This document shows positions 566 to 14,103 of a stretch of 14,235 bases of DNA, one piece after another. The notes beneath the pieces are model-generated. The model saw nothing but the letters and a program-made list of their open reading frames with translations. It was not told the DNA's origin and searched no databases. Positions within the stretch are counted from its first letter, which is position 1. The number at the start of each line of letters is the position of its first letter. The stretch comes from Burkholderiales bacterium. Lineage in GTDB: Bacteria; Pseudomonadota; Gammaproteobacteria; Burkholderiales; Burkholderiaceae. The stretch covers positions 1 through 14,235 of the forward strand of contig CANFNO010000021.1 in assembly GCA_947447845.1 (NCBI GenBank). Direction: 5' to 3'. A program made the translations under genes and the position numbers.

Positions 566-2722
<2,157 letters not shown>

Positions 2723-2725
2723 ATA

Positions 2726-2728
2726 TCA
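2726..2728 (-). other. In-frame TGA nonsense codon within the MASE3 kinase
   Basis: On the minus strand the codons read ACC TGA TAT GTG GCC ATG TAC, with the same frame open on both sides. The codon aligns with a leucine in the paralogous kinase of this operon, and MASE3 domains commonly carry a hydrophobic residue there. A TTA leucine codon would need one change to become TGA, but TTA is rare in this GC-rich sequence; TGG (Trp) and TCA (Ser) are other one-step sources. Confidence 0.85.
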
Positions 2729-3385
2729 GGTAAAGCACAACTCGGTTGCCACGCCCAGCGCCATCACCAGCAACAGGGCGTTGCGCACACTGTGTTTGGC
2801 GTGGTCCTTGTCTTGGGCCAGTTGCAGTGCGGCAATGCAGTAGCCGCCAATCAGCAACCATTCCCAGGCGATCTTGAAGGGTGTCAGCCCCGTGCCGGCA
2901 ATCCAGGCAACCGGCATAAGGCCTTCAAATACCGCTGCGGTCATAACCACACCTGCCACGCCAAAACCGGCGAAGGCATATTTAGCCGGCCACGTTGTTC
3001 TGGCCCATATCGGGGCCACCAAAAAAGCAGTCACCTGCAGCGAGCGGGCGCACATCCAAAGCAGCGGCGGCGTATCCGGCGGATAGCTGCTGGCGTGCCC
3101 CATGCCCTCATAGGTCAGGGTGTGAAAGATATCGATCACGGAAGACCAGAAGAACCCCACCGCCACGATCAGCAGGTAGCGGTTGCTGTTGAAGGTAAAT
3201 GTCTGCACCGCAACCAGGTAGAGCGAAATGCCGATCACCACCGTAAACAACTCGGCCAGCGAGTGGAACCAGGTGTAGGCCAGTTGGCTGACCGTTATCA
3301 GCAGGACGGTCCAAAGCAAGGGCAGGCCCAGGCCCAGGGTTGTGGAATTGATGGACGTCTCGTCCCGGGTGTCAGGGGTGGGCAT
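2726..3385 (-). CDS. N-terminal fragment: MASE3 membrane sensor domain
   Basis: This 219-residue piece holds most of a MASE3 domain, a polytopic membrane sensor module known from histidine kinases and diguanylate cyclases. Visible hallmarks are the first membrane helices (residues about 16-60, with WFHSLAELFTVVIGISLY), a second helix ending in DIFHTLTYEGMG (about 75-95), then PPLLWMCARSLQ and further hydrophobic segments up to MALGVATELCFT, where the TGA occurs. The ligand sensed by MASE3 is unknown. The ATG at 3385 is 39 bases after the stop of the two-PAS gene; I see no strong ribosome-binding site, so translation may depend on coupling within the operon. Alone it has no output domain and lacks the last helix of the fold, so it would be of doubtful use unless the stop is read through or is an error. 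Confidence 0.8.
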   Translation of the reverse strand: MPTPDTRDETSINSTTLGLGLPLLWTVLLITVSQLAYTWFHSLAELFTVVIGISLYLVAVQTFTFNSNRYLLIVAVGFFWSSVIDIFHTLTYEGMGHASSYPPDTPPLLWMCARSLQVTAFLVAPIWARTTWPAKYAFAGFGVAGVVMTAAVFEGLMPVAWIAGTGLTPFKIAWEWLLIGGYCIAALQLAQDKDHAKHSVRNALLLVMALGVATELCFT

Positions 3386-3424: not shown

Positions 3425-4162
3425 TCAAGCGATCGTCGGCGCCATCAAGGTCCACAGAATCTCCTGGTTCTCAAAGGACAGACAGGTGGCCGACACGTCC
3501 AGCGTTACAGTGCCGACCGACCGTGGCAACAGGGTCAGACGATCGGTGTAGCTGGAACCGACCATCAAGATGGGCAGGCAGGTCTCCATCAGCAACTCGC
3601 CCACGCCCTTCGCAAAGAGGTCGGCAAAGGGGGCATCCTGCAATTGCTTGCCCGTATAGCCCAGCATGCGTTGCGCCCCCGTGTTGGACCAACTGATGAG
3701 CCCGTAGCGGGACTTGATCAGGCCCAACCCCGGTATGTTCTGCATGGCATTCATTTCTACAACGTGGCTGGCGGTGTGCACACGTTCCTGGATTTGCGCC
3801 TCACGCAACACCACCATAAGCGTGTCAAAGCCTTGCACGAAGATGCTGATGCTCAGGCTTCTGGCCGTCTCGCCAGCTCCTACGGCTTGCTGGTGCAGAC
3901 CGGGCAGGGGCAAATCCTCGCAGACCACGCAATAGCGCTCTCTGCTGGCGTCCACCAGTGCCTTGAGTTCCGGCCTGGTGTTGCGCAGTAGGTCGAACAA
4001 GTTATCCAGTCGCCCGTTAAATGCCAGTGGCATCAGCACCTTGGCGGCCACCGGGTTCATCATCTGGATGTCGCCACTGCGTGACGCCTGCATCAGCCCC
4101 CAGGGCGTGCGGTACAGAAACTGCAGCAGCTCCTCATACATGGATTCAAAGTTCTGTGGCAT
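3425..4162 (-). CDS. Soluble protein with two PAS domains and no output domain
   Basis: This 245-residue protein seems to consist only of sensor domains. A first PAS-like domain covers about residues 10-120 (RTPWGLMQASRSGDIQMMNP, the usual opening of a PAS fold). A linker helix follows (about 120-140), then a second PAS covers about 142-240, with LISWSNTGAQRMLGYTGKQL matching the PAS pattern of a turn plus 'N..a..llGyt'. No membrane segment, kinase, cyclase or DNA-binding part is seen. The start at ATG 4160-4162 is supported by GGGAG eight bases upstream (4171-4175). It follows the PYP gene by 16 bases and precedes the MASE3 kinase by 39, so all three should be made together. An adaptor between photoreceptor and kinase is one plausible role, but this is inference. 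Bound cofactor, if any, cannot be told from sequence. Confidence 0.85.
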   Translation of the reverse strand: MPQNFESMYEELLQFLYRTPWGLMQASRSGDIQMMNPVAAKVLMPLAFNGRLDNLFDLLRNTRPELKALVDASRERYCVVCEDLPLPGLHQQAVGAGETARSLSISIFVQGFDTLMVVLREAQIQERVHTASHVVEMNAMQNIPGLGLIKSRYGLISWSNTGAQRMLGYTGKQLQDAPFADLFAKGVGELLMETCLPILMVGSSYTDRLTLLPRSVGTVTLDVSATCLSFENQEILWTLMAPTIA

Positions 4163-4178: not shown

Positions 4179-4559
4179 TCAAGTTGCGCGTTTGAGCAGC
4201 AGGTATTGCATTGGAATGCCCGGGGTCGAAAGCAAACGCAGCTTGACCGGTGTTGGCCGCATGCGCCAGGTCAGCACAAAGTCGATGGTTTCGTCCAGCG
4301 GGCTGGCGGCCTCCCGCGCATCCATAAACCTTTGCGCCACCAGGTAGTTGTTCATGCACTGGGCCACTTCGGTAAAGAGCTGGCTCCCGATGATCCGTTC
4401 TGCTTTGATTCCAGTGGCCTGGCTTTCATGCAGGTTGTAGCGTTTCACCACAATGTCTTCATCGAAGGCGATCACGCCGAAATCGAGTTGGTCCAATTGA
4501 CTGTCGTCCAATGCGTGCAGAGTTGCCAAAAGGTTGTGGTCTTCAGACTTAATGCTCAT
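4179..4559 (-). CDS. pyp: Photoactive yellow protein (PYP) homologue, blue-light sensor
   Basis: The 126 residues match the classical PYP of Halorhodospira (125 residues) along the whole length. Shared signatures include DDxQLDxLxFGxI near the N-terminus, the core YNxxExxxTG and the tail MxPTxVK. The residues that hold the p-coumaroyl chromophore are all present with the same spacing: Y41, E45 and T49 (Tyr42, Glu46, Thr50 in PYP) and the thioester cysteine C68 (Cys69). The methionine important for dark recovery is also present (M100). Differences are Ile at the Arg52 position (I51), Leu for Phe62 (L61) and Gln for Pro68 (Q67). It should be a cytosolic photoreceptor absorbing blue light after covalent attachment of p-coumaric acid. 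The ATG overlaps the stop of the upstream dCache-PAS gene (ATGA) and has an AGAGG ribosome-binding site, so it is well placed for translation. Chromophore synthesis genes (tyrosine ammonia lyase, coumarate-CoA ligase) are not in this window. Confidence 0.93.
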   Translation of the reverse strand: MSIKSEDHNLLATLHALDDSQLDQLDFGVIAFDEDIVVKRYNLHESQATGIKAERIIGSQLFTEVAQCMNNYLVAQRFMDAREAASPLDETIDFVLTWRMRPTPVKLRLLSTPGIPMQYLLLKRAT

Positions 4560-5956
4560 GATTCCTCTCTGTGGTTGTGTAAAAAGTGACTGATGTCGCG
4601 TGCAGAGCAGTACAGCAGCGCACCGGTCGAATACATGACCGTGCTGACATAAAGCTCCACATCCAACAGGCTGCCATCGAGCCTGCGGTATTGGGTTTCC
4701 AATTTGCGAACCAGGCCATGGGCGCTCGTCGTGTCATGCGCTTTCCCTGCTTCCGGGGCGGGTGGCAGCAGGTCTTGTAGCGTTAGCGCGGTGATCTGCG
4801 CGATGTTGCGGCCCTGCAGGTAATCCGGGTGGTAGCCCAACAGGGTGGACAGGGACTGGCTGGCGCTGACGATGGTGCCGCTCTGGTCCAGGATATGCAC
4901 ACCGTCTTGCGAGGCCTCGGCCTTCGCCAGGCTTTCCTGCAGCGCGTCTTCGAGCTTGCTGCGTCCGCTGGTTTCGCGTCGTATAGAAAAGTAAATCAGC
5001 ACGCTCAGCGCAGCCATGATGGCGGCGGCCAACGCGCACAGCAGTGCGATGCGTTCGACTTGGGCGCGCCAGGGCACTAGAAAACTGTCGGTACCCTCAC
5101 CCACGACGACCATGAACGGATACCCGCCGACCCGCTGAAAGGCCGTTAAGCGTTCTATGCCGTCCTGTCGTGCGGTGGAAAGAAAACTACCGCTGGCCGC
5201 TTGACTGTCAAACGCGCGTGCCAGTTCAGGGGATGTTTCGGTGCTGCCAAACCAGGTGTCCTGGCTTTGCCCGGTTGCTACGCGGGCCAGGGTTTGCCGC
5301 GCGTTGTTGCGCAGGCTGACAGCACCCTTTTCAACCAGTTCGCCACCGACAAGAAGCCGATGAAAGTGCATGGGGTCAATGGCCGCACTCACGATGCCGG
5401 CGAAGCTGCCATCGGCATGCTCCAGCCTTCTTACCGCATAAAGCGCCGGGCTGTGCGTGGCCTGAGAGATTTCCGCGCCGCTGAAAAGCATGGCGTGCTT
5501 GTCTTGGTCGCGGGCCTGCTGAAAATGTGCGCGCTCATGCAGGTCGATGGTTTGCGAGGGGTCCAGGTGGTCACCATAGCGCACCAGACCTTGTGCATCT
5601 GTCACCATCAATCCATCCAGCAGGGGCATGAGGCGAATTTGGGTCGCCAGCATGGCGTTGACATGCTCAGCGTGCAGGGGCTTGTCTTTTGCACCCATCG
5701 TCTGCAGTTGCTGTGTCAAGTTCTTCAGGCCCAGATCGATCAAATCCATCTCGCCACCGATGGTCTGGCCGATGGAGCGCGCCAGCCCTCGCACGCGGCT
5801 GCGCTCGTCTTCTTGCTCGCTGTGCAAAATGCTGGCCTGCCATTGCACCACCAGCCCGAGCAGCACCGCCACCAGCACGACGTTGCCAAGAAGTAGCCAA
5901 TTGCGCAGACGCTTGAGAAAGGCGCGTTCGCGCCGCGCCACTGCCTCATAGGCCAT
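4556..5956 (-). CDS. Membrane sensor: TM - periplasmic dCache - TM - PAS, no output domain
   Basis: This 466-residue protein starts with a basic N-terminus and a membrane helix (about 20-40). A periplasmic region of about 260 residues follows, with the dCache/PDC pattern: a long helix (42-90), then GLMVTDAQGLVRYG, DLHERAHFQQARD and the 'isqathspalyavRRl' segment, then 'GSFAGIVSAAIDP'. A second helix (about 302-323) leads to a cytosolic PAS domain (about 345-460, with GVHILDQSGTIVSASQSLS and YRRLDGSLLDVEL). dCache domains typically bind small ligands such as amino acids or organic acids; the ligand here is unknown. The protein ends right after the PAS domain with no GGDEF, kinase or chemotaxis signalling domain. 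ATG 5956 has GGAG seven bases upstream. It overlaps the preceding gene by 11 bases and the PYP gene by 4, so translation is likely coupled. Confidence 0.88.
   Translation of the reverse strand: MAYEAVARRERAFLKRLRNWLLLGNVVLVAVLLGLVVQWQASILHSEQEDERSRVRGLARSIGQTIGGEMDLIDLGLKNLTQQLQTMGAKDKPLHAEHVNAMLATQIRLMPLLDGLMVTDAQGLVRYGDHLDPSQTIDLHERAHFQQARDQDKHAMLFSGAEISQATHSPALYAVRRLEHADGSFAGIVSAAIDPMHFHRLLVGGELVEKGAVSLRNNARQTLARVATGQSQDTWFGSTETSPELARAFDSQAASGSFLSTARQDGIERLTAFQRVGGYPFMVVVGEGTDSFLVPWRAQVERIALLCALAAAIMAALSVLIYFSIRRETSGRSKLEDALQESLAKAEASQDGVHILDQSGTIVSASQSLSTLLGYHPDYLQGRNIAQITALTLQDLLPPAPEAGKAHDTTSAHGLVRKLETQYRRLDGSLLDVELYVSTVMYSTGALLYCSARDISHFLHNHREES
4563..4569 (-). promoter_or_regulatory. 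Ribosome-binding site of the PYP gene
   Basis: GAGAGGA lies three bases before ATG 4557-4559, inside the end of the upstream dCache-PAS gene. It is one of the better Shine-Dalgarno matches in the operon and fixes the PYP start, which gives a protein aligning with classical PYP from its first residues. Confidence 0.7.
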
Positions 5957-7664
5957 GGTTGAGCTCCGTGTAGGGCGTCACAAGGCACACCCATACCTGG
6001 CTGCCATCTGACCGCTCTTCGGGTTTTGCGGAGACCAGTTGCAAGGCCTCGGTGCCTTGGCCCGGCACATGGTGGCTCCAATGCAAATGCAGAGCCTGGT
6101 GGGTGAGCGCGGCCGTCTCAATGGCGGAAATGATGCGTGGCAAGTCGGTAGGCACGATCCGGTTGAACCACTGCTGCATCCACTCAACGGGCGAGGCATC
6201 GTGCGCCACATGCAAGCCACGTGCACACGCATCGCTGCGCACCGGACAGTGGTAGCTGCCGCCCACATTGCGCTGCAGCGCAAACAGCATGGAGTCAGCC
6301 ATGGCCATCACGACATCCAGCAAACGCCCACGGTCGATCTGCGCCTGATCCAGCGCCCGCTGCCGGGCATATTCATCCTGCTGCTGGGTCACCGGCCGCA
6401 GCAAGGTCACCACGCACTTTTGCCCCTCAAACATTAGACTGCCAATGCTGACGTCGGCCAAAAATTCATTGCCGTCATGGTGCAGGCAGCGCAAAGGTTT
6501 GTCTTGGCTTCCCATGGTCCGGGTGTGGGGCGCGAATTCAAGCTGTTGCCGTCTTTTGGCCTGCGCCTCACGCAGGTCCAGCGGTGTGAGCAGGTCCACC
6601 GATAGCCCCAACATGCTGTGCGCGCCAAAACCAAAAAGGCGCTCTGCCGCGCTATTGGATTCCAGGATGCGGCCGCCGGTTTCCACAATCAGGATGGCAT
6701 CCGGCACCGCTGCCAACAGCGCGGTGAACGAATGGCGTGAACGCTCCAACTCCAGCAACTTGTCGTTCAGCTTGCTGTTGGACTCCTCGTACTCATGAAA
6801 CACTTCCACCAGTCGCGCGTTGACCTTGGCCAGATCGTCAAACAACTCTTCAGAGCTGAACACCCGCTCCAGCGCATGCGTGGTCAGATAGGCCCGCAGA
6901 ACACCATAGCCCAGCACCGAAAACCCGACCGCAAAAATGCCATGTGCCAACCACCACAGGTGGTTCCAGGGAGCCGCCAGCAAGAAGGCGACAGACGCTG
7001 TTGCAAACCAGGCCAACGCCAGCATCAAGTAGCGCATGAGGCGCGTGCGCGCAGGCATCAAGTTAAGCAGCGTCAGCGACACCACATTGCAAATCAAGGC
7101 GCCGGTTTCCATGCCCGCACGCGGCCAGGGCAGCATGCCCAACTCACTCGTGGCTAACGCAGCCACGGTGACATTCACAGCCATCAGATAGCCTAGAAAG
7201 CGCCACCAGAAGCTCAAACTACTGCGCTGCGCCAACGATTCGGTTGCCTTGTTGTGTGCACGCACAGCAACCAGCAAGAGCACACCCATGCACAGACGCG
7301 AGGCCGGCCCATACAGAACGAACAGCGTCATGTGGTGTGCTGCGACTGGCGTGAACATGCCGTGCAGGGAATAAACCACGGTAAAGGCCATAAAGCCTTG
7401 CGTCATGCGCTTGGCCAGCAACTCACCCGTGCGCTGGTAGCACAGCCAGCACACATAGGTCAGCGCAGCCCCTTCCAACGTTGCCAGCGCGATGGCTGCC
7501 TCGTGAAACAGGGGGTCATCAAAACGCAGCGCAGGGTCCTGCCACAGCTTCAGGTACAGCACCGGCAGCAGGGGCAACAGGTAGAGTGCAAATTGCATCA
7601 GCCGGGCCGCTGTGCGGATGATCCGGTCGACTGGTTTTTGGGGAGTGGCGGGAAACAGTTGCAT
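5946..7664 (-). CDS. Polytopic membrane protein with PAS domains, no output domain
   Basis: I chose ATG 7662-7664, four bases after the stop of the preceding kinase; the frame is open further upstream, but that would overlap the kinase. The 572-residue product has about eight hydrophobic helices in residues 22-260, a coiled-coil-like linker (about 268-305, with VEVFHEYEESNSKLNDKLLE), a clear PAS domain (about 310-430; LLAAVPDAILIVETGGRILE) and a C-terminal region (about 445-565) that may be a second, divergent PAS. I do not recognise the membrane domain as a named family; it contains several histidines in or near helices (H101, H110, H111, H235, H241). The C-terminal region has a compact Cys/His group (H472, C473, C480, H485, H488) that could bind metal. 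No kinase or nucleotide cyclase domain is present. Probably a membrane sensor that signals through partners. No clear ribosome-binding site is seen, suggesting translational coupling. Confidence 0.82.
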   Translation of the reverse strand: MQLFPATPQKPVDRIIRTAARLMQFALYLLPLLPVLYLKLWQDPALRFDDPLFHEAAIALATLEGAALTYVCWLCYQRTGELLAKRMTQGFMAFTVVYSLHGMFTPVAAHHMTLFVLYGPASRLCMGVLLLVAVRAHNKATESLAQRSSLSFWWRFLGYLMAVNVTVAALATSELGMLPWPRAGMETGALICNVVSLTLLNLMPARTRLMRYLMLALAWFATASVAFLLAAPWNHLWWLAHGIFAVGFSVLGYGVLRAYLTTHALERVFSSEELFDDLAKVNARLVEVFHEYEESNSKLNDKLLELERSRHSFTALLAAVPDAILIVETGGRILESNSAAERLFGFGAHSMLGLSVDLLTPLDLREAQAKRRQQLEFAPHTRTMGSQDKPLRCLHHDGNEFLADVSIGSLMFEGQKCVVTLLRPVTQQQDEYARQRALDQAQIDRGRLLDVVMAMADSMLFALQRNVGGSYHCPVRSDACARGLHVAHDASPVEWMQQWFNRIVPTDLPRIISAIETAALTHQALHLHWSHHVPGQGTEALQLVSAKPEERSDGSQVWVCLVTPYTELNHGL

Positions 7665-7668
7665 GGTT

Positions 7669-10443
7669 TTATTCGGCTGTTGCCAATGACGGCAGGCGTT
7701 GCCGGATTTGTGTAAGCACCTGCTCAAGCCGACTGGCGAGTTGTTCAACGAGTTCGCTGGGGATTGCGCGGGAGTGCATCAGCAACTCTTCAAGCTGCTT
7801 TGCCTTGGCCTGCGTGCTGGTGGCACCCAGAAAGCCGGCTGCCCCTTGCAGCTTGTGCGCCAGACGTTGAATTTCTTCATGTCCGCCCTCTGCCAGGTGG
7901 AGGCGAAGGTCCGCTGGCACTGCCGCGTAGGTGTCTAAAAAGGTTTGTAAAAACTGTCGTCGACTGTCTGGCTTTTTCAGGCGCTTCTCCATATCGTCCC
8001 AATCCAGCAGCATTGGTGCTGCGGCTGCAGTGGCAGCAGCAGATGCCGGAGCCTCCGCGTTGCGGCGTGTGGCCAGCAATAAGGCTGCCACCAGTTTGTC
8101 TATATCCACGGGCTTGGTGACGTGGGCCAGCATGCCGGCGTCCAGGCAGCGCTGGCGCTCTTCCTGCATCGCATAGGCGGTAAGCCCTATCACTGGGAGG
8201 GTCGGGCGCATCTGCAGGGCGCGACGTGCCGTTTCATAACCATTGATGCCCGGCATCTGTATATCGGTCACCAGCACGTCAAATTCCTGCGCGCTGGCCA
8301 AGACCTCCAGTGCCAGCAGGCCGTCCGAGACGATCTGGATGCGGGCCCCCTCCTGCTCCAGCAACTCGCGCAGCACCCACCGATTGACCGAGTCATCCTC
8401 TGCTGCCAGGATGCGCAGCCCGGCCAGACGCTGCAGCGCTGCGCCTGAGCTGTCCGCGATAGCTTCCTGCTTCTGCACTTCGGCCACCTGCACCGGCAAG
8501 CGAACGGTAAAGCAGGAGCCCATACCGGCCTGGCTGGAGAGGTCAATGCGCCCGCCCATCATCTCCACGAGTTGCTTGCTGATGGTCAACCCCAGCCCGC
8601 TACCGCCGTACTTGCGCGCAATCGACGTGTCGGCCTGCACAAATGGGGCGAACAATCTGGCCATCTGATCGGGCCCCATGCCGATGCCACTGTCCAGGAC
8701 CGAGAGTTGCAACCAACCGGCGCCCTCCACCAGAGTGGTCTGGGCGCGCACGGTGATGCTGCCTTTTGCGGTGAACTTGACGGCATTGCTGAGCAGGTTG
8801 TTGAGCACCTGAATCAGTCGCGTGTCATCACCTACGATGGCTTCGGGCAGTCCTTTGTCGAGTTCGATGCGCAGTAACAGCCCCTTGGCTTCTGCGCGGG
8901 GGCGTACCAGTTCCACGGAGCGCGCGATGTTCTCGCGCAACACCACAATGCCGCTCTCCAGTGTCAGTTTGCCGGCTTCGACTTTGGCCACATCAAGCAC
9001 ATCGTCTACCAAAGCCAGCAACAGGCGCCCGGATTCCTGAATTTGAGTCAGATACGGCTTTGCATTGGCAAGTTGTGGGGTGCGAATGCCGACTTGCGCC
9101 AGGCCGATGATGCCGTTGAGCGGGGTGCGAAGTTCGTGGCTCATGTTGGACAGGAATTCGCTCTTGGCACGGGTGGCTGTCATGGCCTGTTCCAGCGCCT
9201 GGTGCAGCGCCAGTGTGTGTTCTTCCACCAACGCGCCCAGGTGCTCGCGGTGTTTGGCGAGTTCATCCTGCAACTGCCTTTGCTCCGTTACATCTTGCAC
9301 ATAGGCCACCCAGATGTAAGAGCCGTCTGGTTGGCGTTGGGGCGCGGCACTAACGCCTCGGTGCCACCGCTGCCCTTGACGCGGCAGGTTGACCGGCCAT
9401 TCGTCTGACCAACCTTCGAGCGCGGCAAAGGAATGGTCAATGGCTTTTTGGATGCGCCCCAAATGCTCAGGATGGATACGACCGAAAGTCAGCGACACGT
9501 CGCGCATGACCTGATCTGCACTCAATTCCAGAATGTCGTGGACCCCCTCGCTGACAAACGGCATGCGGAACTGGCCATCAGGCATGCGTTGAAACTGGAA
9601 TGTCATACCCGGCACGCGGCTGACCACGCTTTGCAACATATCGACCTGTTTCTGCAGCGCAGCCGCAGGCCGGCGCAACAAGTATTCGCGTACCAGCCAT
9701 AGCATCAACCAATAGGCCCAGAAGTTCAGCGTGTGGCCCAGGGCCTCCGACAGGCCATTGGCAGTGCCGTGCAGACTGAACAAAACTTCGGCACCGCCGG
9801 TCAGTGCCATCAGCAGCAACAATGGATTGCGCGCCTGCGCCAGTTGTGCGTAGTGGGCAATTCGGACTGCCGCCACGCCGCACAAAATAACCAGTGCCCA
9901 CTCCCAAGCCAAAGCCATGGCGGCCAAACTTTCGGGTTCCAGTCCGGTCAGCGGGTTCCAGCCGGATAGATCCAGGGCCAGCATCGCGCAAGAGGGGATT
10001 CCGGCGCCGACAAATAGACTATCTAATTTGCCTTTGTCATCCTGCACGCGGGGCGCCAATACGATCACGACCACCAAAACCGTGCGCAAGTAGAGCCACA
10101 GCAAGGGCGATATATGGCCCGCAAAGGGCATTTGGTCACCGGCAAGCGCATGCAGCACATTCAGGCAACTTGACCAGAAAAAACCAATGGCAATGGCACG
10201 CAAATAGCCGCCACCTGGATGCTGTGAGCCACTAAAGGCCACGAAGTACAGGCTGATGCCCATCACCGAGGTGACCAGTTCCATCACTAGGTGAAACCAG
10301 CTCATATTGACAAAGCTAAGACCCAGCAGGGCAGCAGCGACCAGCATCGGCTTCAACAACTGTGCCGCTACAAGCCATAGGCTGTGTTCGTTGGTCTGCG
10401 GTTCGGCAACCGTCCTTTGTGACGCCGAATTTTCCGGTGTCAA
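7669..10443 (-). CDS. MASE3-PAS hybrid histidine kinase with REC and Hpt domains
   Basis: This is the intact 924-residue paralogue of the interrupted kinase. A MASE3 membrane sensor covers residues about 25-255 ([34 protein letters not shown]). A PAS domain (about 268-390, ending YVQDVTEQ) and a coiled coil lead to HisKA with H436 in [11 protein letters not shown]. The HATPase has [15 protein letters not shown] and KYGGSGLGL. The receiver domain has AEDD and D727 in VTDIQMPG, and the Hpt domain has H863 in [10 protein letters not shown]. All four phosphotransfer centres look functional, so it should run a His-Asp-His relay to a separate receiver, the REC-EAL protein being the closest candidate. 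The start is a TTG (10441-10443) overlapping the TGA of the REC-EAL gene, since no in-frame ATG occurs before residue 33, which lies inside a helix. The unusual start suggests translation depends on the upstream gene. Confidence 0.93.
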
Positions 10444-11624
10444 ATTGGCTGTGCAGTGGCTAACGGAAAGTCCGCAAGCCAGGCCAGCACCTCATTGATC
10501 GGCATGGCCTTGGCAAACAGATAACCCTGCACTACATCGCAGCCCAGCAACTTGGCCACGGCAAAGTCGTCATCCGTCTCCACCCCTTCGGCGACAGACA
10601 CCACGCCCAACTTGCGCGCCAGCAGTACGCTGGATTCGAACATGGCATACGACCGCGAATCGTTGGCCGAATCGTGCACAAAGGCTTTGTCAATTTTGAG
10701 TTCTGTGAAGGGCAGGCGGTGCAACTGCGCCATCGATGAATAGCCGGTGCCAAAGTCGTCAATGGAAAGGCCGAAGCCTTTGAGCCGCAGGCGCGCCAGA
10801 ATTTCCTGGGCTAACGGATGGCCTTGCGTCACGCCACTTTCGGTAATTTCCACAATGACATCCGAAGTTTTGACGTCGGCTGCCAGTACCAGCGCCTCAA
10901 GTTGCTCGGGTAGTGTGGGGTCGTGCAGACTTCTGGCAGAGAAGTTGACCGACATTCGAATGGCAATGCCATGCGCATTCAAGGTGCGCATGGCAGCCAA
11001 TGCCGTGTTGAACACCACATGCATAACGTCATCAATCAGCCCGCATTCTTCGGCCAGCGTAATGAAGGCCAGTGGCGAGACAAAGCCGCGCTGGACATGA
11101 TGCCATCGCGCCAGCACCTCCATGCCCACCGGTATGCCACTTGCAACGTGAATTTGCGGCTGGAACCAGGCTTCAATGTGGCCCTGTTCCAATGCCACGT
11201 GCAGGTCTTTGGCACCAATCGGCGGCCCAAAGGGTGAAGTGACCTGTCGGGCATCCCTGGCGTGGATAAGCAGGTTCTCGATGGCTTCGGTATCAAAAGG
11301 CTTTTGCAGTATGCCCAGCATGCGCAAACCCAGTGACTCGCCCATTTCCTCACAGGCTTTAAGGATGCGCCAGTCGGAACCGCTGAGCAAAATGATTCCG
11401 CCGCCAAAGTGGCGGCTGCCCAGATGGCGCAGTAGCTGCACGCCGTCCATGCCCGGCATTTGCAGATCGCAAAAGAGCACGGAAGGCGTCAAGCCATTGT
11501 CCAGATACTCTAAGGTTTGCGCTCCCGTGCCCGTGGATATGACGTTCTGGTAACCCAATTCATCAAGCGACAGTTCCATCAGCGTGGTCACCAGACTGTC
11601 GTCATCCACGACCAGCATCGTCAT
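10440..11624 (-). CDS. REC-EAL response regulator, predicted c-di-GMP phosphodiesterase
   Basis: The first gene of the operon, 394 residues. The receiver domain (about 1-120) has DDD at 7-9, acceptor D53 in FCDLQMPG and K108 in LQKPF. The EAL domain (about 135-385) keeps the residues for metal binding and hydrolysis: EVLAR (E169, an EVL variant of EAL), N227 in SVNFSA, E259 in EITES, the D289-D290 pair in [11 protein letters not shown]310 in KID, E346 in AEGVET and Q366 in QGYLF. It should hydrolyse c-di-GMP to pGpG under control of phosphorylation, lowering c-di-GMP and so usually favouring motility over biofilm. ATG 11622-11624 was preferred over the upstream in-frame TTG at 11642 because AAAGGG sits nine bases before the ATG and the receiver then begins as usual (MTMLVVDDD). 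Likely phosphodonors are the Hpt domains of the two operon kinases. Confidence 0.93.
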
Positions 11625-11887: not shown

Positions 11888-12682
11888 ATGCCGCGTGCTG
11901 AAATCCTGATCATTGATGACCTGATGGAATCCGTGGCATTGCTGCTGCGCTTTTTCAAAAGCGAACCGATTGACGCCATGGTGGCTCTCAACGGGGTTGA
12001 TGGGCTGCGTAAGGCGCGCGAGGGACAACCCGATGCCATCCTGCTCGATGTAGCCATGCCCGGAATGGATGGCTACAGTGTGTGCCGCGAACTCAAGGCG
12101 GACAATCGCACGGCCCATATCCCGGTTATTTTTCTGTCGGCCAACACCAGCTTGCAGCACAAGCTCGACGGCTTTGCCGCAGGCGGCGTGGACTACATCG
12201 GAAAGCCCTTTAGTTCGGAAGAAGTTATGGCTCGGGTGTATGTGCACCTGCGATCCGGCAACCGGCCCCGGCAAGTCATGCCGGGTAGCGGCGCGGGTCT
12301 GCAGCGCCTGGTGGCACGTGAGCAGGATGGGGAAAACAGCATCGTCACCACGGCTCTGGTGTTTCTGCAGGAGGCAGGGCAGGAGTGGCTGGCGCTTGAG
12401 CCATTGGCACGCAAGGTGGGTGTGAACGAACGGCGTTTGACGGAGTTGTTTCGCAAGCACCTGGGAATGACGGTTGCCGAGTACCAAATCACACAAAGGC
12501 TTGAAGTAGCGCGCGCAAAGTTGTGCAACAGCGCCCAACAAATCCAGGTGATTGCAGAGGAGGCGGGCTACCAGAATGCGAGCGACTTTTCACGCGCCTT
12601 TCGTGCGCGCTATGGCCTGGGGCCGCGTGATTACCGGCAGGCCAGTACGGGTGCTGCGGCGACGCTTCTAAAAATGGAATGA
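11888..12682 (+). CDS. Response regulator with AraC-type DNA-binding domain
   Basis: 264 residues. The receiver domain (about 1-120) has the acidic pair D10-D11, acceptor D54 in LLDVAMPGMDG, the switch Ser in FLSA and K106 in GKPF. The C-terminal AraC/XylS-type domain (about 150-255) shows two helix-turn-helix units: LEPLARKVGVNERRLTELF and VIAEEAGYQNASDFSRAF, followed by GLGPRDYR, the family signature. It should be a cytosolic transcription factor switched on by phosphorylation. It is divergent from the kinase operon, so control of that operon and of itself is a natural guess. ATG 11888 gives a receiver of normal length; no good ribosome-binding site precedes it. It overlaps the next gene by four bases (ATGA), so the two are coupled. 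The phosphodonor is not encoded in its own operon; the divergent hybrid kinases are the nearest candidates. Confidence 0.93.
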   Translation: MPRAEILIIDDLMESVALLLRFFKSEPIDAMVALNGVDGLRKAREGQPDAILLDVAMPGMDGYSVCRELKADNRTAHIPVIFLSANTSLQHKLDGFAAGGVDYIGKPFSSEEVMARVYVHLRSGNRPRQVMPGSGAGLQRLVAREQDGENSIVTTALVFLQEAGQEWLALEPLARKVGVNERRLTELFRKHLGMTVAEYQITQRLEVARAKLCNSAQQIQVIAEEAGYQNASDFSRAFRARYGLGPRDYRQASTGAAATLLKME

Positions 12683-14103
12683 GCGTGCACAAGGAACAAT
12701 CTTTCTTGAACCTATTGCGCGAAGGTGGTAACACCGGCATGTGGTCGTACAGCCCGGTCACGCAGCAGCTGGATGCCGATGCCAACACCTGCAAACTGAT
12801 GCAATGCACAGACCCGTCACCCACTTGCCTGGCGCAGATGTTGGCCTGTGTTCATCCGGATGACCGGGCGCTACTGGAGCAGGACTTGCACGCTGCGGTG
12901 TCAAGTAAGGGGGCATGTACCCGTACGTTCCGAGTGCAGGCGGAGGGCACAACCACACAGTTGACCCTGCGTGCGCGCTGGTGTGCCTTGCCTGACTCCG
13001 GTGGTGGTGCACTGTTGGGCGTGGTCGAGCGCAGTCTGCTTCCTTCGCTGCAGGCGCAAGCGATCGAGCAGCGTTTTGAGCAATGGCGCAACGCTTTGGT
13101 TGGCTCTCCGGTGGTCATCTATGAACAGGACGCGCAGTTGCTTTATGAGTGGGTACTGGCACCGCGAGTCGGCTTGGACATGAACGCTATCACCGGCCAT
13201 TTGGCAAGCGACTTTCTTGAACCCGAATGTGCCGCAGAGATTGATCGCATCAAACGGCGCGTGATGGACAGCGGTAGCCCTGAGCGCCGACGGGTACACA
13301 TCCGGTCCAAGTCAGGCGAGGGAGGGGACTTTGATGTGTATCTGGCACCGCGCCGTGGGTCAGACGGCCAGGTAAACGGCTTGATGAGCGTGGCCATCGA
13401 CGTCGCGAAGCCCAACTTGCGTGAGCAGCAACTGCTTACGGTTTTTGAAAGCGCGCCCGTTCCCATTTCACTCTCACGCTTGTCGGATGGTGTTTTCATT
13501 CAAGTCAACACGCAGTTTCTGGAGTTGTTTGGCTACAGCCTGAAGGAGGTTCTTGGCTCTGGCGCACTTGGGCTAAACCTGTGGCATCAGGCTGAAGACC
13601 GGAACAGAATGCTGGCAGAACTGAAGGCCAATGGGCAGGTGCGCAATCTGGTGACTGGCTACCGCCACAAATCTGGACGCATTGGGCGCGTGCAAATGTC
13701 TGTGGAATTGGTGGAGGTAGGGGGTGAGATGCTGCTGTTGGCGGTGTTGACCGACATTAGTGCGTTAGAGGAAGCACGGCGCTCCCTGGCTCAGAGTGAA
13801 GCGCGCTACAAGGTGCTTTCAGAGGCCAGTTTTGAGGGGGTAGGTTTGGCCCGCGACGGCATCGTAGTGGACGCGAATGAACAGATCGCGCGCATGCTGG
13901 GCGTGCCCCGTGAGCAGTTGATCGGCAAGCCCGTCACGCATAACATGCGACGCGCTGACGTTCCCCGGGCGCTGCAGGCATTCCACACAGGCGGTGATTC
14001 GAATAATGAGTACGAATACTTGCGCCCGGATGGCAGCAAGGTGATATTGGAAGTCAACAGCAAAGACCTGGTTCAGGATGGTGAAGTTCGTTTAGGTTTG
14101 TAG
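12679..14103 (+). CDS. Protein with four PAS domains, truncated in the last one
   Basis: 474 residues, soluble, built of four PAS-type domains: about 10-115 (PAS3-like, with VHPDDRALLEQDL), 130-243 (SPVVIYEQDAQLLYEWV, of the kind often found before HWE-type kinases, ending GLMSVAIDV), 248-362 (FESAPVPISLSRLSDGVFIQ, ending LLAVLTDISALEEA) and 375-474 (LSEASFEGVGLARDGIVVDA). The final PAS stops at EVRLGL, within the last strand, where relatives continue with a 'rDiTerk'-type end and normally lead to a kinase or GGDEF domain. No such continuation is found in any frame after the TAG. The protein therefore looks truncated. The start ATG overlaps the TGA of the REC-AraC gene. If expressed it would be another sensor without output, perhaps once the cognate kinase of that regulator. 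Confidence 0.85.
   Translation: MSVHKEQSFLNLLREGGNTGMWSYSPVTQQLDADANTCKLMQCTDPSPTCLAQMLACVHPDDRALLEQDLHAAVSSKGACTRTFRVQAEGTTTQLTLRARWCALPDSGGGALLGVVERSLLPSLQAQAIEQRFEQWRNALVGSPVVIYEQDAQLLYEWVLAPRVGLDMNAITGHLASDFLEPECAAEIDRIKRRVMDSGSPERRRVHIRSKSGEGGDFDVYLAPRRGSDGQVNGLMSVAIDVAKPNLREQQLLTVFESAPVPISLSRLSDGVFIQVNTQFLELFGYSLKEVLGSGALGLNLWHQAEDRNRMLAELKANGQVRNLVTGYRHKSGRIGRVQMSVELVEVGGEMLLLAVLTDISALEEARRSLAQSEARYKVLSEASFEGVGLARDGIVVDANEQIARMLGVPREQLIGKPVTHNMRRADVPRALQAFHTGGDSNNEYEYLRPDGSKVILEVNSKDLVQDGEVRLGL

What the first reader, a model, noticed from the sequence alone, without database searches (positions are those of the whole stretch)
4179..4559. Photoactive yellow protein embedded in a c-di-GMP phosphorelay operon
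Seen: a 126-residue PYP homologue with Y41, E45, T49 and C68 intact, ATGA-coupled to a dCache-PAS sensor and in one run with two hybrid kinases and a REC-EAL phosphodiesterase. Known: PYP is a blue-light sensor whose downstream partners are largely unclear outside PYP-phytochrome fusions. Inference: this locus offers a full candidate route from PYP to c-di-GMP turnover, with the two-PAS protein or the kinases as direct partners.
Basis: partly seen in the sequence, partly recalled or inferred. Interest (0 to 1): 0.88.

Follow-up and report, generated by a model that had tools for sequence, protein, structure and literature searches.

The report
Blue-light sensor with conserved partner domain
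The gene looks like a member of a little-studied branch of bacterial blue-light sensors, and the gene right after it carries an unnamed domain that follows this branch almost everywhere we looked, making it a strong candidate for the missing partner that receives the light signal.

Summary
ORF 4179-4559(-) is a photoactive yellow protein (PYP) homologue with Tyr/Glu/Thr/Cys intact and a predicted PYP fold. It belongs to the published, uncharacterised "clade C" (mostly Burkholderiales), whose nearness to GGDEF/EAL genes is also published. What seems new is the partner. The 245-aa "two-PAS" protein just downstream begins with a ~113-aa divergent PAS domain, here called X, with no Pfam or NCBIfam family of its own. 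X occurs in 77 of 80 clade-C PYP loci, nearly always starting within ~100 bp after pyp, and heads various outputs: diguanylate cyclase, cyclase/phosphodiesterase, histidine kinase. In 399 Burkholderiales genomes, strong X and strong clade-C PYP occur in the same 11. Ten PYPs of other clades have no X within 1.5 kb. X co-varies with PYP more than its fused domains do. Exceptions: one clade-C PYP without X, one X without PYP beside it. The window and two relatives are a variant: X-PAS without an enzyme and without the usual DxT linker, in a phosphorelay operon with REC-EAL. The dCache-PAS gene is not conserved in those relatives; one of the two hybrid kinases has an in-frame stop. Binding, chromophore and light response are untested.

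The parts
4179..4559 (-). PYP homologue, clade C, 126 aa (Y41, E45, T49, C68)
3425..4162 (-).
3800..4138 (-). domain X: divergent PAS domain that accompanies clade-C PYP (residues 9-121)
   Evidence: HMM hit (P0121, the window protein); PAS topology with high pLDDT; no Pfam or NCBIfam hit at E<=0.01
3440..3742 (-). second, C-terminal PAS domain of the X-PAS protein (about residues 141-241; boundary read from the model), almost nothing after it
   Evidence: secondary structure of the model; Pfam PAS hit in the L001 homologue
4556..5956 (-). dCache-PAS sensor protein, 466 aa, overlaps the pyp start; not found in L001 or L002
5946..7664 (-). membrane protein with PAS and a C-terminal PAS-like domain (open frame from 7748; ATG at 7664; membrane part read from sequence, no TM predictor run)
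   Evidence: C-terminal domain conserved next to pyp in L001 and L002
7669..10443 (-). MASE3-HisKA-HATPase-REC-Hpt hybrid histidine kinase, intact
10440..11624 (-). REC-EAL c-di-GMP phosphodiesterase with the EAL active-site motifs present (EVL variant); open frame from 11642, ATG at 11624
566..3385 (-). second MASE3-HisKA-HATPase-REC-Hpt hybrid kinase, broken by an in-frame stop
2726..2728 (-). in-frame TGA in the second hybrid kinase (codon 220)
11888..12682 (+). divergent REC-AraC response regulator (80% identical copy in L001)
12679..14103 (+). multi-PAS protein overlapping the REC-AraC stop

Best explanation
Clade-C PYP and domain X are most likely the two halves of one blue-light receptor. 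PYP is the soluble, chromophore-bearing half. X is a dedicated receiver PAS domain at the head of an effector protein, to which PYP binds in trans in a light-dependent way. Different effectors follow X through its C-terminal DxT linker: X-PAS-GGDEF cyclases, X-GGDEF-EAL enzymes and X-histidine kinases. In the window, X sits on a bare X-PAS adaptor that lacks the DxT linker, so the signal most likely passes by PAS-PAS contact to the operon's intact hybrid kinase, then by Hpt to the REC-EAL phosphodiesterase and/or the divergent REC-AraC regulator. Shown here: homology, intact binding residues, gene order, co-occurrence, domain architectures, co-variation. Inferred: binding, light dependence, chromophore, direction of the effect, and every step of the phosphorelay.
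For: X found in 77 of 80 clade-C PYP loci, 125 domains, lowest score 72.9 bits. Of the 3 without X, in L016 and L038 the contig ends 155 and 296 bp after the PYP match, and L054 keeps a frame-broken X-like stretch after pyp (read by eye). In 76 of 80 loci X is downstream on the same strand, 21-105 bp from the PYP match in 75 of these 76 and 301 bp in one; output next to X: cyclase 52, cyclase-phosphodiesterase 12, kinase 8, none 4 (two of the 4 are contig-end or frame artefacts). Unbiased test: strong X (E<1e-19) in 11 of 399 Burkholderiales genomes, strong clade-C PYP (E<1e-37) in the same 11, at least one X next to PYP in each of the 11. 0 of 10 PYPs of other clades has X within 1.5 kb. Plasmids: 11 records hold X, all among the 13 with PYP. 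Mirror tree over 52 loci: partial correlation PYP-X 0.56 (bootstrap 5-95% 0.43-0.66) against -0.01 for the neighbouring PAS and 0.29 for GGDEF. DxT pattern in 117 of 125 X domains of the loci but in only 1 of 34 stand-alone X-PAS proteins with a complete X, and that match reads as chance. A pyp-type coumaryl-CoA ligase lies directly upstream of clade-C pyp in 20 of 80 loci.
Against: No binding or light data. No natural PYP-X fusion among the ORFs of the 80 loci or the 120 listed X proteins. One clade-C PYP (CP099603, L137) has no X in 16 kb. One X in G184 (C41, 73 bits) has no PYP within 2.3 kb, though that genome has clade-C PYP elsewhere. In L058 X lies at the C-terminus of a divergently encoded protein. 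The nearest relatives of the window lack the pyp-type ligase (no hit in G001 and G002 at E<=1e-40), so chromophore supply is unproven there. Co-variation falls to 0.39 without five Sphaerotilaceae, and on the 44 loci with two X genes PYP fits X1, X2 and GGDEF almost alike (0.67, 0.62, 0.63; partial 0.33 for X1 and 0.13 for X2). Six X domains besides L001 and L002 also fail the DxT pattern, five of them without stand-alone architecture. What follows X-PAS differs in the three members of the window's branch, so the adaptor's target is open.
Confidence: 0.62

Rival explanations
1. PYP and X are inherited as one transcription unit but do not touch: X senses its own ligand, and PYP acts elsewhere or only through shared expression.
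For: All evidence here is genomic; X is a PAS fold and could bind a ligand. The partners further downstream differ between loci. Part of the co-variation is shared with GGDEF.
Against: Several output types stand behind the same PYP-X pair. PYP varies with X and not with the PAS domain in the same protein. In whole-genome searches strong X was found only in genomes with clade-C PYP, with one X not beside it.
Confidence: 0.2
2. In this window PYP signals to the ATGA-coupled dCache-PAS protein or straight to a hybrid kinase, as the first reader also proposed; X-PAS is a bystander.
For: Overlap of the dCache-PAS stop and the pyp start. Kinases near pyp are described in PMC12826048. X-PAS here has no output domain.
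Against: dCache-PAS is missing in both nearest relatives, while X-PAS is kept right after pyp in all three. Stand-alone X-PAS relatives form a coherent family of about 36 proteins, the window's included.
Confidence: 0.15
3. This PYP branch carries no p-coumaric acid and has become a redox or other sensor.
For: No pyp-type ligase in G001 or G002; none among the window's scanned genes. The position of Arg52 is hydrophobic in 120 of 120.
Against: Tyr42, Glu46 and Cys69 kept in 120 of 120. A pyp-type ligase adjoins clade-C pyp in 20 of 80 loci; it was found in 8 of 30 PYP genomes (in G400 beside its other-clade PYP) and 0 of 30 without strong PYP. Most predicted pyp operons also lack TAL and pCL genes (PMC12826048).
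Confidence: 0.1
4. The window locus is a decaying copy: X lost its output and linker, one kinase is broken, so nothing is signalled.
For: In-frame TGA in the kinase; linker absent.
Against: X-PAS without linker is shared with relatives from 79% down to 41% identity over nearly full length, so it persists. PYP residues, HK2 and REC-EAL are intact.
Confidence: 0.08

Closest known systems
PYP clade C (Xing, Gumerov, Zhulin 2022, PMC9664959)
   Same: Burkholderiales host; Tyr42, Glu46, Cys69, Met100 kept; Phe92, Phe96, Trp119 lost; GGDEF/EAL neighbours
   Different: The paper reports adjacency to GGDEF genes; in the Results and Discussion that I read it names no shared N-terminal domain in those neighbours and no X-PAS adaptor form
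pyp operons with GGDEF/EAL or histidine kinases (Dohmen et al. 2025, PMC12826048)
   Same: Its Table 2 counts 29 GGDEF and 22 EAL operons, 8 HisKA and 9 HATPase
   Different: In the sections read these are separate associations; here one domain, X, underlies GGDEF, GGDEF-EAL and kinase neighbours of clade C
Idiomarina loihiensis PYP with its adjacent GGDEF protein (clade A; as cited in PMC9664959 and PMC12826048)
   Same: Single-domain PYP thought to act on a neighbouring cyclase in trans; blue light lowers biofilm
   Different: Other PYP clade; presence of X there was not tested here
Tandem PAS proteins PpsR, FixL, DosP (fold matches)
   Same: Tandem PAS fold
   Different: 11-16% identity, TM-score 0.34-0.40 on the two-domain model; no DNA-binding, kinase or EAL part in X-PAS

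Membership tests
PYP family (as defined in PMC9664959) | Cys69 for thioester bond | tested here: met
   C68 in the window; 120 of 120 homologues
PYP family (as defined in PMC9664959) | Tyr42 and Glu46 | tested here: met
   Y41, E45; 120 of 120
PYP family (as defined in PMC9664959) | PYP fold closer to PYP than to other PAS domains | tested here: met
   Model pLDDT 88.1; first 39 PDB hits are PYP or PYP-derived
PYP family (TIGR02373 equivalog) | score above curated cut-off 143.05 | tested here: not met
   70.1 bits; the paper says this model matches about 20% of BLAST-found PYPs
PYP family | binds p-coumaric acid and has a photocycle | not testable with these tools
   needs protein
PYP clade C | loss of Phe92, Phe96 and Trp119, Met100 kept | tested here: met
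   window I, L, Y and M at these positions
PYP clade C | groups apart from other PYPs | tested here: met
   21 X-bearing PYPs plus L137 form one side of a 100/100 branch against 11 others (33 rows). The clade name is assigned by traits and host, not by the paper's own tree
domain X | full-length match to the X profile, far above generic PAS | tested here: met
   window X 121.1 bits; in the 388 genomes without strong X the best hit is 28.5 bits
domain X | DxT output linker at its end (usual, 117 of 125; not needed for membership) | tested here: not met
   LREA in the window; LRES in L001 and L002
domain X | binds PYP | not testable with these tools
   needs protein

The most novel reading that the evidence does not exclude
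Domain X is the long-sought direct receiver of PYP for one whole branch of the family: an obligate two-protein photoreceptor whose receiver PAS has been plugged into at least three kinds of output (cyclase, cyclase-phosphodiesterase, histidine kinase). The window shows a further form in which a bare X-PAS adaptor feeds light into a multi-step phosphorelay.
Probability: 0.5. Interest if true: 0.92.

Novelty: new variant of a known kind. Interest (0 to 1): 0.8.

Why it matters
PYP is among the most studied light sensors, yet a 2024 review ends by saying that its signalling partner is still unknown (PMC11003764, passage), and a 2026 abstract calls the partner of H. halophila PYP unidentified (PMC13250908, search listing). 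X gives a concrete, genetically linked candidate for clade C that can be tested with two small proteins. If it holds, it also explains how one sensor can drive cyclases, phosphodiesterases and kinases, and gives a two-part blue-light switch. It would not settle the partner of H. halophila PYP, which belongs to another clade.

Tried and rejected
dCache-PAS as a conserved partner: rejected, no tblastn hit at E<=1e-4 in L001 or L002. Chromophore enzymes in the window: none among the ten proteins scanned with Pfam. A search with the pyp-type ligase of Caballeronia SBC2 gave hits in 8 of 30 PYP genomes, not in G001 or G002. Tyrosine ammonia lyase was not searched. X as a generic PAS domain: rejected, since in the 388 genomes without strong X hits stop at 28.5 bits and cover at most 94 of 112 positions. 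Natural PYP-X fusions: no ORF with both in the 80 loci; none among the 120 listed of 1008 X proteins, where the only two PYP-profile hits are 17.4 and 12.1 bits at residues 124-191, behind X. X in the PDB: only a chance hit, E 0.096. Own-genome search: no genome held. Linkage of X-PAS to PYP in metagenomes by equal longest-contig length: 14 of 36 X-PAS proteins share a length with one of the 36 closest PYPs; suggestive only. A phylum-wide draw of 398 genomes with TIGR02373 gave 75 genomes at E<=1e-3, nearly all generic PAS; five places were strong (E<1e-16), two clade C with X and three of other clades without.

Full report
What is there. ORF 4179-4559(-) encodes a 126-aa PYP homologue. The best PDB match is the PYP domain of R. 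centenum Ppr (E 1.9e-16), the AlphaFold model has mean pLDDT 88.1, and its first 39 Foldseek hits are PYP or PYP-derived structures. In the 120 listed of 562 homologues, Tyr42, Glu46 and Cys69 are kept in 120 of 120; position 50 is T 64, A 36, S 20; position 52 is L, V, I, M or F in 120 of 120. It has the published clade-C traits: Phe92, Phe96 and Trp119 lost, Met100 kept (PMC9664959, Results and Discussion read). In a tree with ten PYPs of other clades from loci and the H. halophila sequence, it falls inside a 100/100 group of 22 rows, with L001 (100/96) and L002 (96/90) as nearest rows.

Operon. On the minus strand: REC-EAL (10440-11624), MASE3 hybrid kinase with Hpt (7669-10443), membrane PAS protein (5946-7664), dCache-PAS (4556-5956), PYP, the 245-aa two-PAS protein (3425-4162), a second MASE3 hybrid kinase (566-3385); REC-AraC and a multi-PAS gene run the other way.

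The partner domain. The two-PAS protein has no Pfam hit at E<=1e-3. A scan of one genome per species gave 277 stretches encoding relatives; the best 80 loci were kept, a few genomes giving two. tblastn and then a profile of the N-terminal part of the two-PAS protein showed a domain, X, of about 113 aa in 77 of 80 loci: 125 domains, weakest 72.9 bits. Of the three without it, L016 and L038 end right after pyp, and L054 holds a frame-broken X-like stretch (my reading by eye). In 76 of 80 loci X begins 21-301 bp downstream of the PYP match, in 75 of them within 105 bp; in L058 it is upstream, on the other strand, at the C-terminus of its protein. 36 X domains (of the 125 plus the window's) scanned one by one gave only weak generic PAS matches in Pfam (PAS 4, PAS_8 3, PAS_4 2 of 36 at E<=0.01) and none in NCBIfam; the window's own X gave none in either. 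The model of the window protein (pLDDT 84.9) shows two PAS folds, X at about 95 over much of its core; Foldseek finds tandem PAS proteins such as PpsR, DosP and FixL, with low overall TM-scores.

Outputs. The gene that carries X next to pyp ends in GGDEF in 52 loci, GGDEF-EAL in 12, histidine kinase in 8 and nothing in 4. Of these 4, L037 has a frame break before a kinase and L042 ends at the contig edge, so only L001 and L002 are true stand-alone forms. 47 loci have a second X, mostly in an X-GGDEF-EAL gene. All 52 X-PAS-GGDEF proteins have GGEEF; 56 of 56 EAL domains have the catalytic motifs I searched for (55 EAL, 1 EVL); in the X-GGDEF-EAL proteins a crude pattern finds canonical GGDEF in 28 of 59. 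On the best quick PYP tree the output label changes 13 times (least possible 3), but the tree is weakly resolved, two of the labels are the artefacts just named, and well-supported branches alone force only 1-2 changes per label. Exchange of outputs is therefore likely but its number is unsure.

Is X tied to PYP? In 20 PYP genomes searched whole there were 33 X hits, all at E<=1.3e-29; three that lay outside the loci in hand were checked and have PYP directly upstream. In 399 Burkholderiales genomes strong X (E<1e-19) was found in 11 and strong clade-C PYP (E<1e-37) in the same 11, with at least one X beside PYP in each. One X in G184 (C41, 73 bits) has no PYP within 2.3 kb. Hits in the other 388 genomes do not pass 28.5 bits for X; for PYP, G145 has four other-clade PYPs (best E 7e-16) and the rest do not pass 27.5 bits. 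Fisher p about 1e-21 ignores kinship. The first look of that tool scored only about 10-11 candidates per genome, so a missed X cannot be excluded. Ten PYPs of other clades (L132; four in G145 seen through L122, L133, L135, L136; the second PYP of L139; L140; L141; L143; L144) have no X within 1.5 kb; L143 and L144 lack the chromophore Cys (sequences), and in L139 an X lies 3.3 kb away, beside its own clade-C pyp. Plasmids: 13 records with PYP, 11 with X, all 11 among the 13, including Rhizobium, Methylobacterium, Sphingomonas, Polymorphobacter and Indioceanicola. The two without X are CP099603 (clade C, a real exception in 16 kb) and CP025613 (another clade). In 250 genomes of the family of L001, some of them already counted above, 19 have X at E<=1e-10; 14 of 15 loci fetched hold a clade-C PYP upstream of X (in L179 0.85 kb away), and the fifteenth, L184, ends 164 bp beyond its X.

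Co-variation. Over 52 X-PAS-GGDEF loci the distances of PYP correlate with X at 0.73, with the middle PAS at 0.60 and with GGDEF at 0.55. Partial correlations are 0.56, -0.01 and 0.29; none of 500 permutations reached the X or the GGDEF value, 278 of 500 reached that of the middle PAS. Without five Sphaerotilaceae the values are 0.39, -0.07 and 0.24. On the 44 loci with two X genes PYP correlates with X1, X2 and GGDEF at 0.67, 0.62 and 0.63, and the partial values are 0.33 for X1 and 0.13 for X2. This fits contact between PYP and X but does not prove it.

The window's variant. The two-PAS protein has 37 hits at E<=1e-3, itself included; all but P0157 (an X-PAS-GGDEF) are stand-alone proteins or pieces, 41-100% identical. 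In 117 of 125 X domains of the loci a DxT/S pattern, the usual output linker of PAS domains (recalled), follows the last strand. The eight that fail are L001 and L002 (LRES, as LREA in the window), the broken L037, and L027, L051, L058, L061 (one of two) and L079, some of which show near variants. Of 35 stand-alone X-PAS proteins in which the profile finds X, one is a fragment without the end of X (P0156); of the other 34, 33 lack the pattern and the one match (P0149) reads as chance. So loss of the linker and loss of the enzyme mostly go together. Beside PYP in all three members of the branch: X-PAS, a hybrid kinase, and the C-terminal domain of the membrane PAS protein; REC-EAL in window and L002; REC-AraC in window and L001; dCache-PAS in the window alone. 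After X-PAS come the broken kinase (window), a chemoreceptor (L001) and a REC protein (L002).

Chromophore. A pyp-type coumaryl-CoA ligase (query: neighbour of the classic pyp in Caballeronia sp. SBC2, L139) gave hits in 22 of 80 loci: in 20 directly upstream of the clade-C pyp, in two (L067, L070) 2-3 kb away beside another PYP. It was found in 8 of 30 PYP genomes (in G400 beside its other-clade PYP) and in 0 of 30 without strong PYP, at E<=1e-40. It is missing from G001 and G002, so the window's branch would need another ligase or imported coumarate.

Prior work. PMC9664959 reports clade C beside GGDEF genes and notes that no clade-C member has been characterised (outline, Results, Discussion and passages seen). 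PMC12826048 counts pyp operons with GGDEF/EAL and kinases (outline, sections 4, 5, 6, 8, 10 and passages seen). Searches listed no paper whose title or abstract start describes a common domain in these neighbours; supplementary tables could not be read. So adjacency is known; the shared domain X and its adaptor form appear new within what I could search.

Noticed in passing
window 2726-2728: In-frame TGA splits the second MASE3 hybrid kinase between MASE3 and the kinase part; pseudogene or assembly error.
   Followed up: partly
L058:8304-9833: X sits at the C-terminus of a 509-aa protein encoded divergently upstream of pyp, the only such arrangement among 80 loci.
   Followed up: no
L064:10177-12969: Two X domains in tandem in one X-X-GGDEF-EAL frame; P0160 and P0161 may be alike (two X starts at residue 153, not assigned by name).
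   Followed up: no
L054:4632-6131: Geobacteraceae locus with pyp followed by a frame-broken X-like remnant.
   Followed up: partly
L139:7950-12320: Caballeronia sp. SBC2 plasmid holds a clade-C pyp with X-cyclase and, 3.3 kb beyond its X, a classic pyp with its CoA ligase: two PYP systems side by side.
   Followed up: partly
L137:7980-8366: Clade-C PYP without X, near a BLUF gene and a 4.1-kb PAS gene; natural test case for PYP without the usual partner.
   Followed up: no
L189:2372-2701: X domain (73 bits) in genome G184 without PYP within 2.3 kb; the same genome holds clade-C PYP on other contigs.
   Followed up: partly
L122 and L133 (genome G145): Four distant PYP homologues in tandem pairs within about 3.5 kb.
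   Followed up: no
L001:11127-13094: In the nearest relative a 4HB-HAMP chemoreceptor follows X-PAS, hinting at phototaxis as another output.
   Followed up: partly
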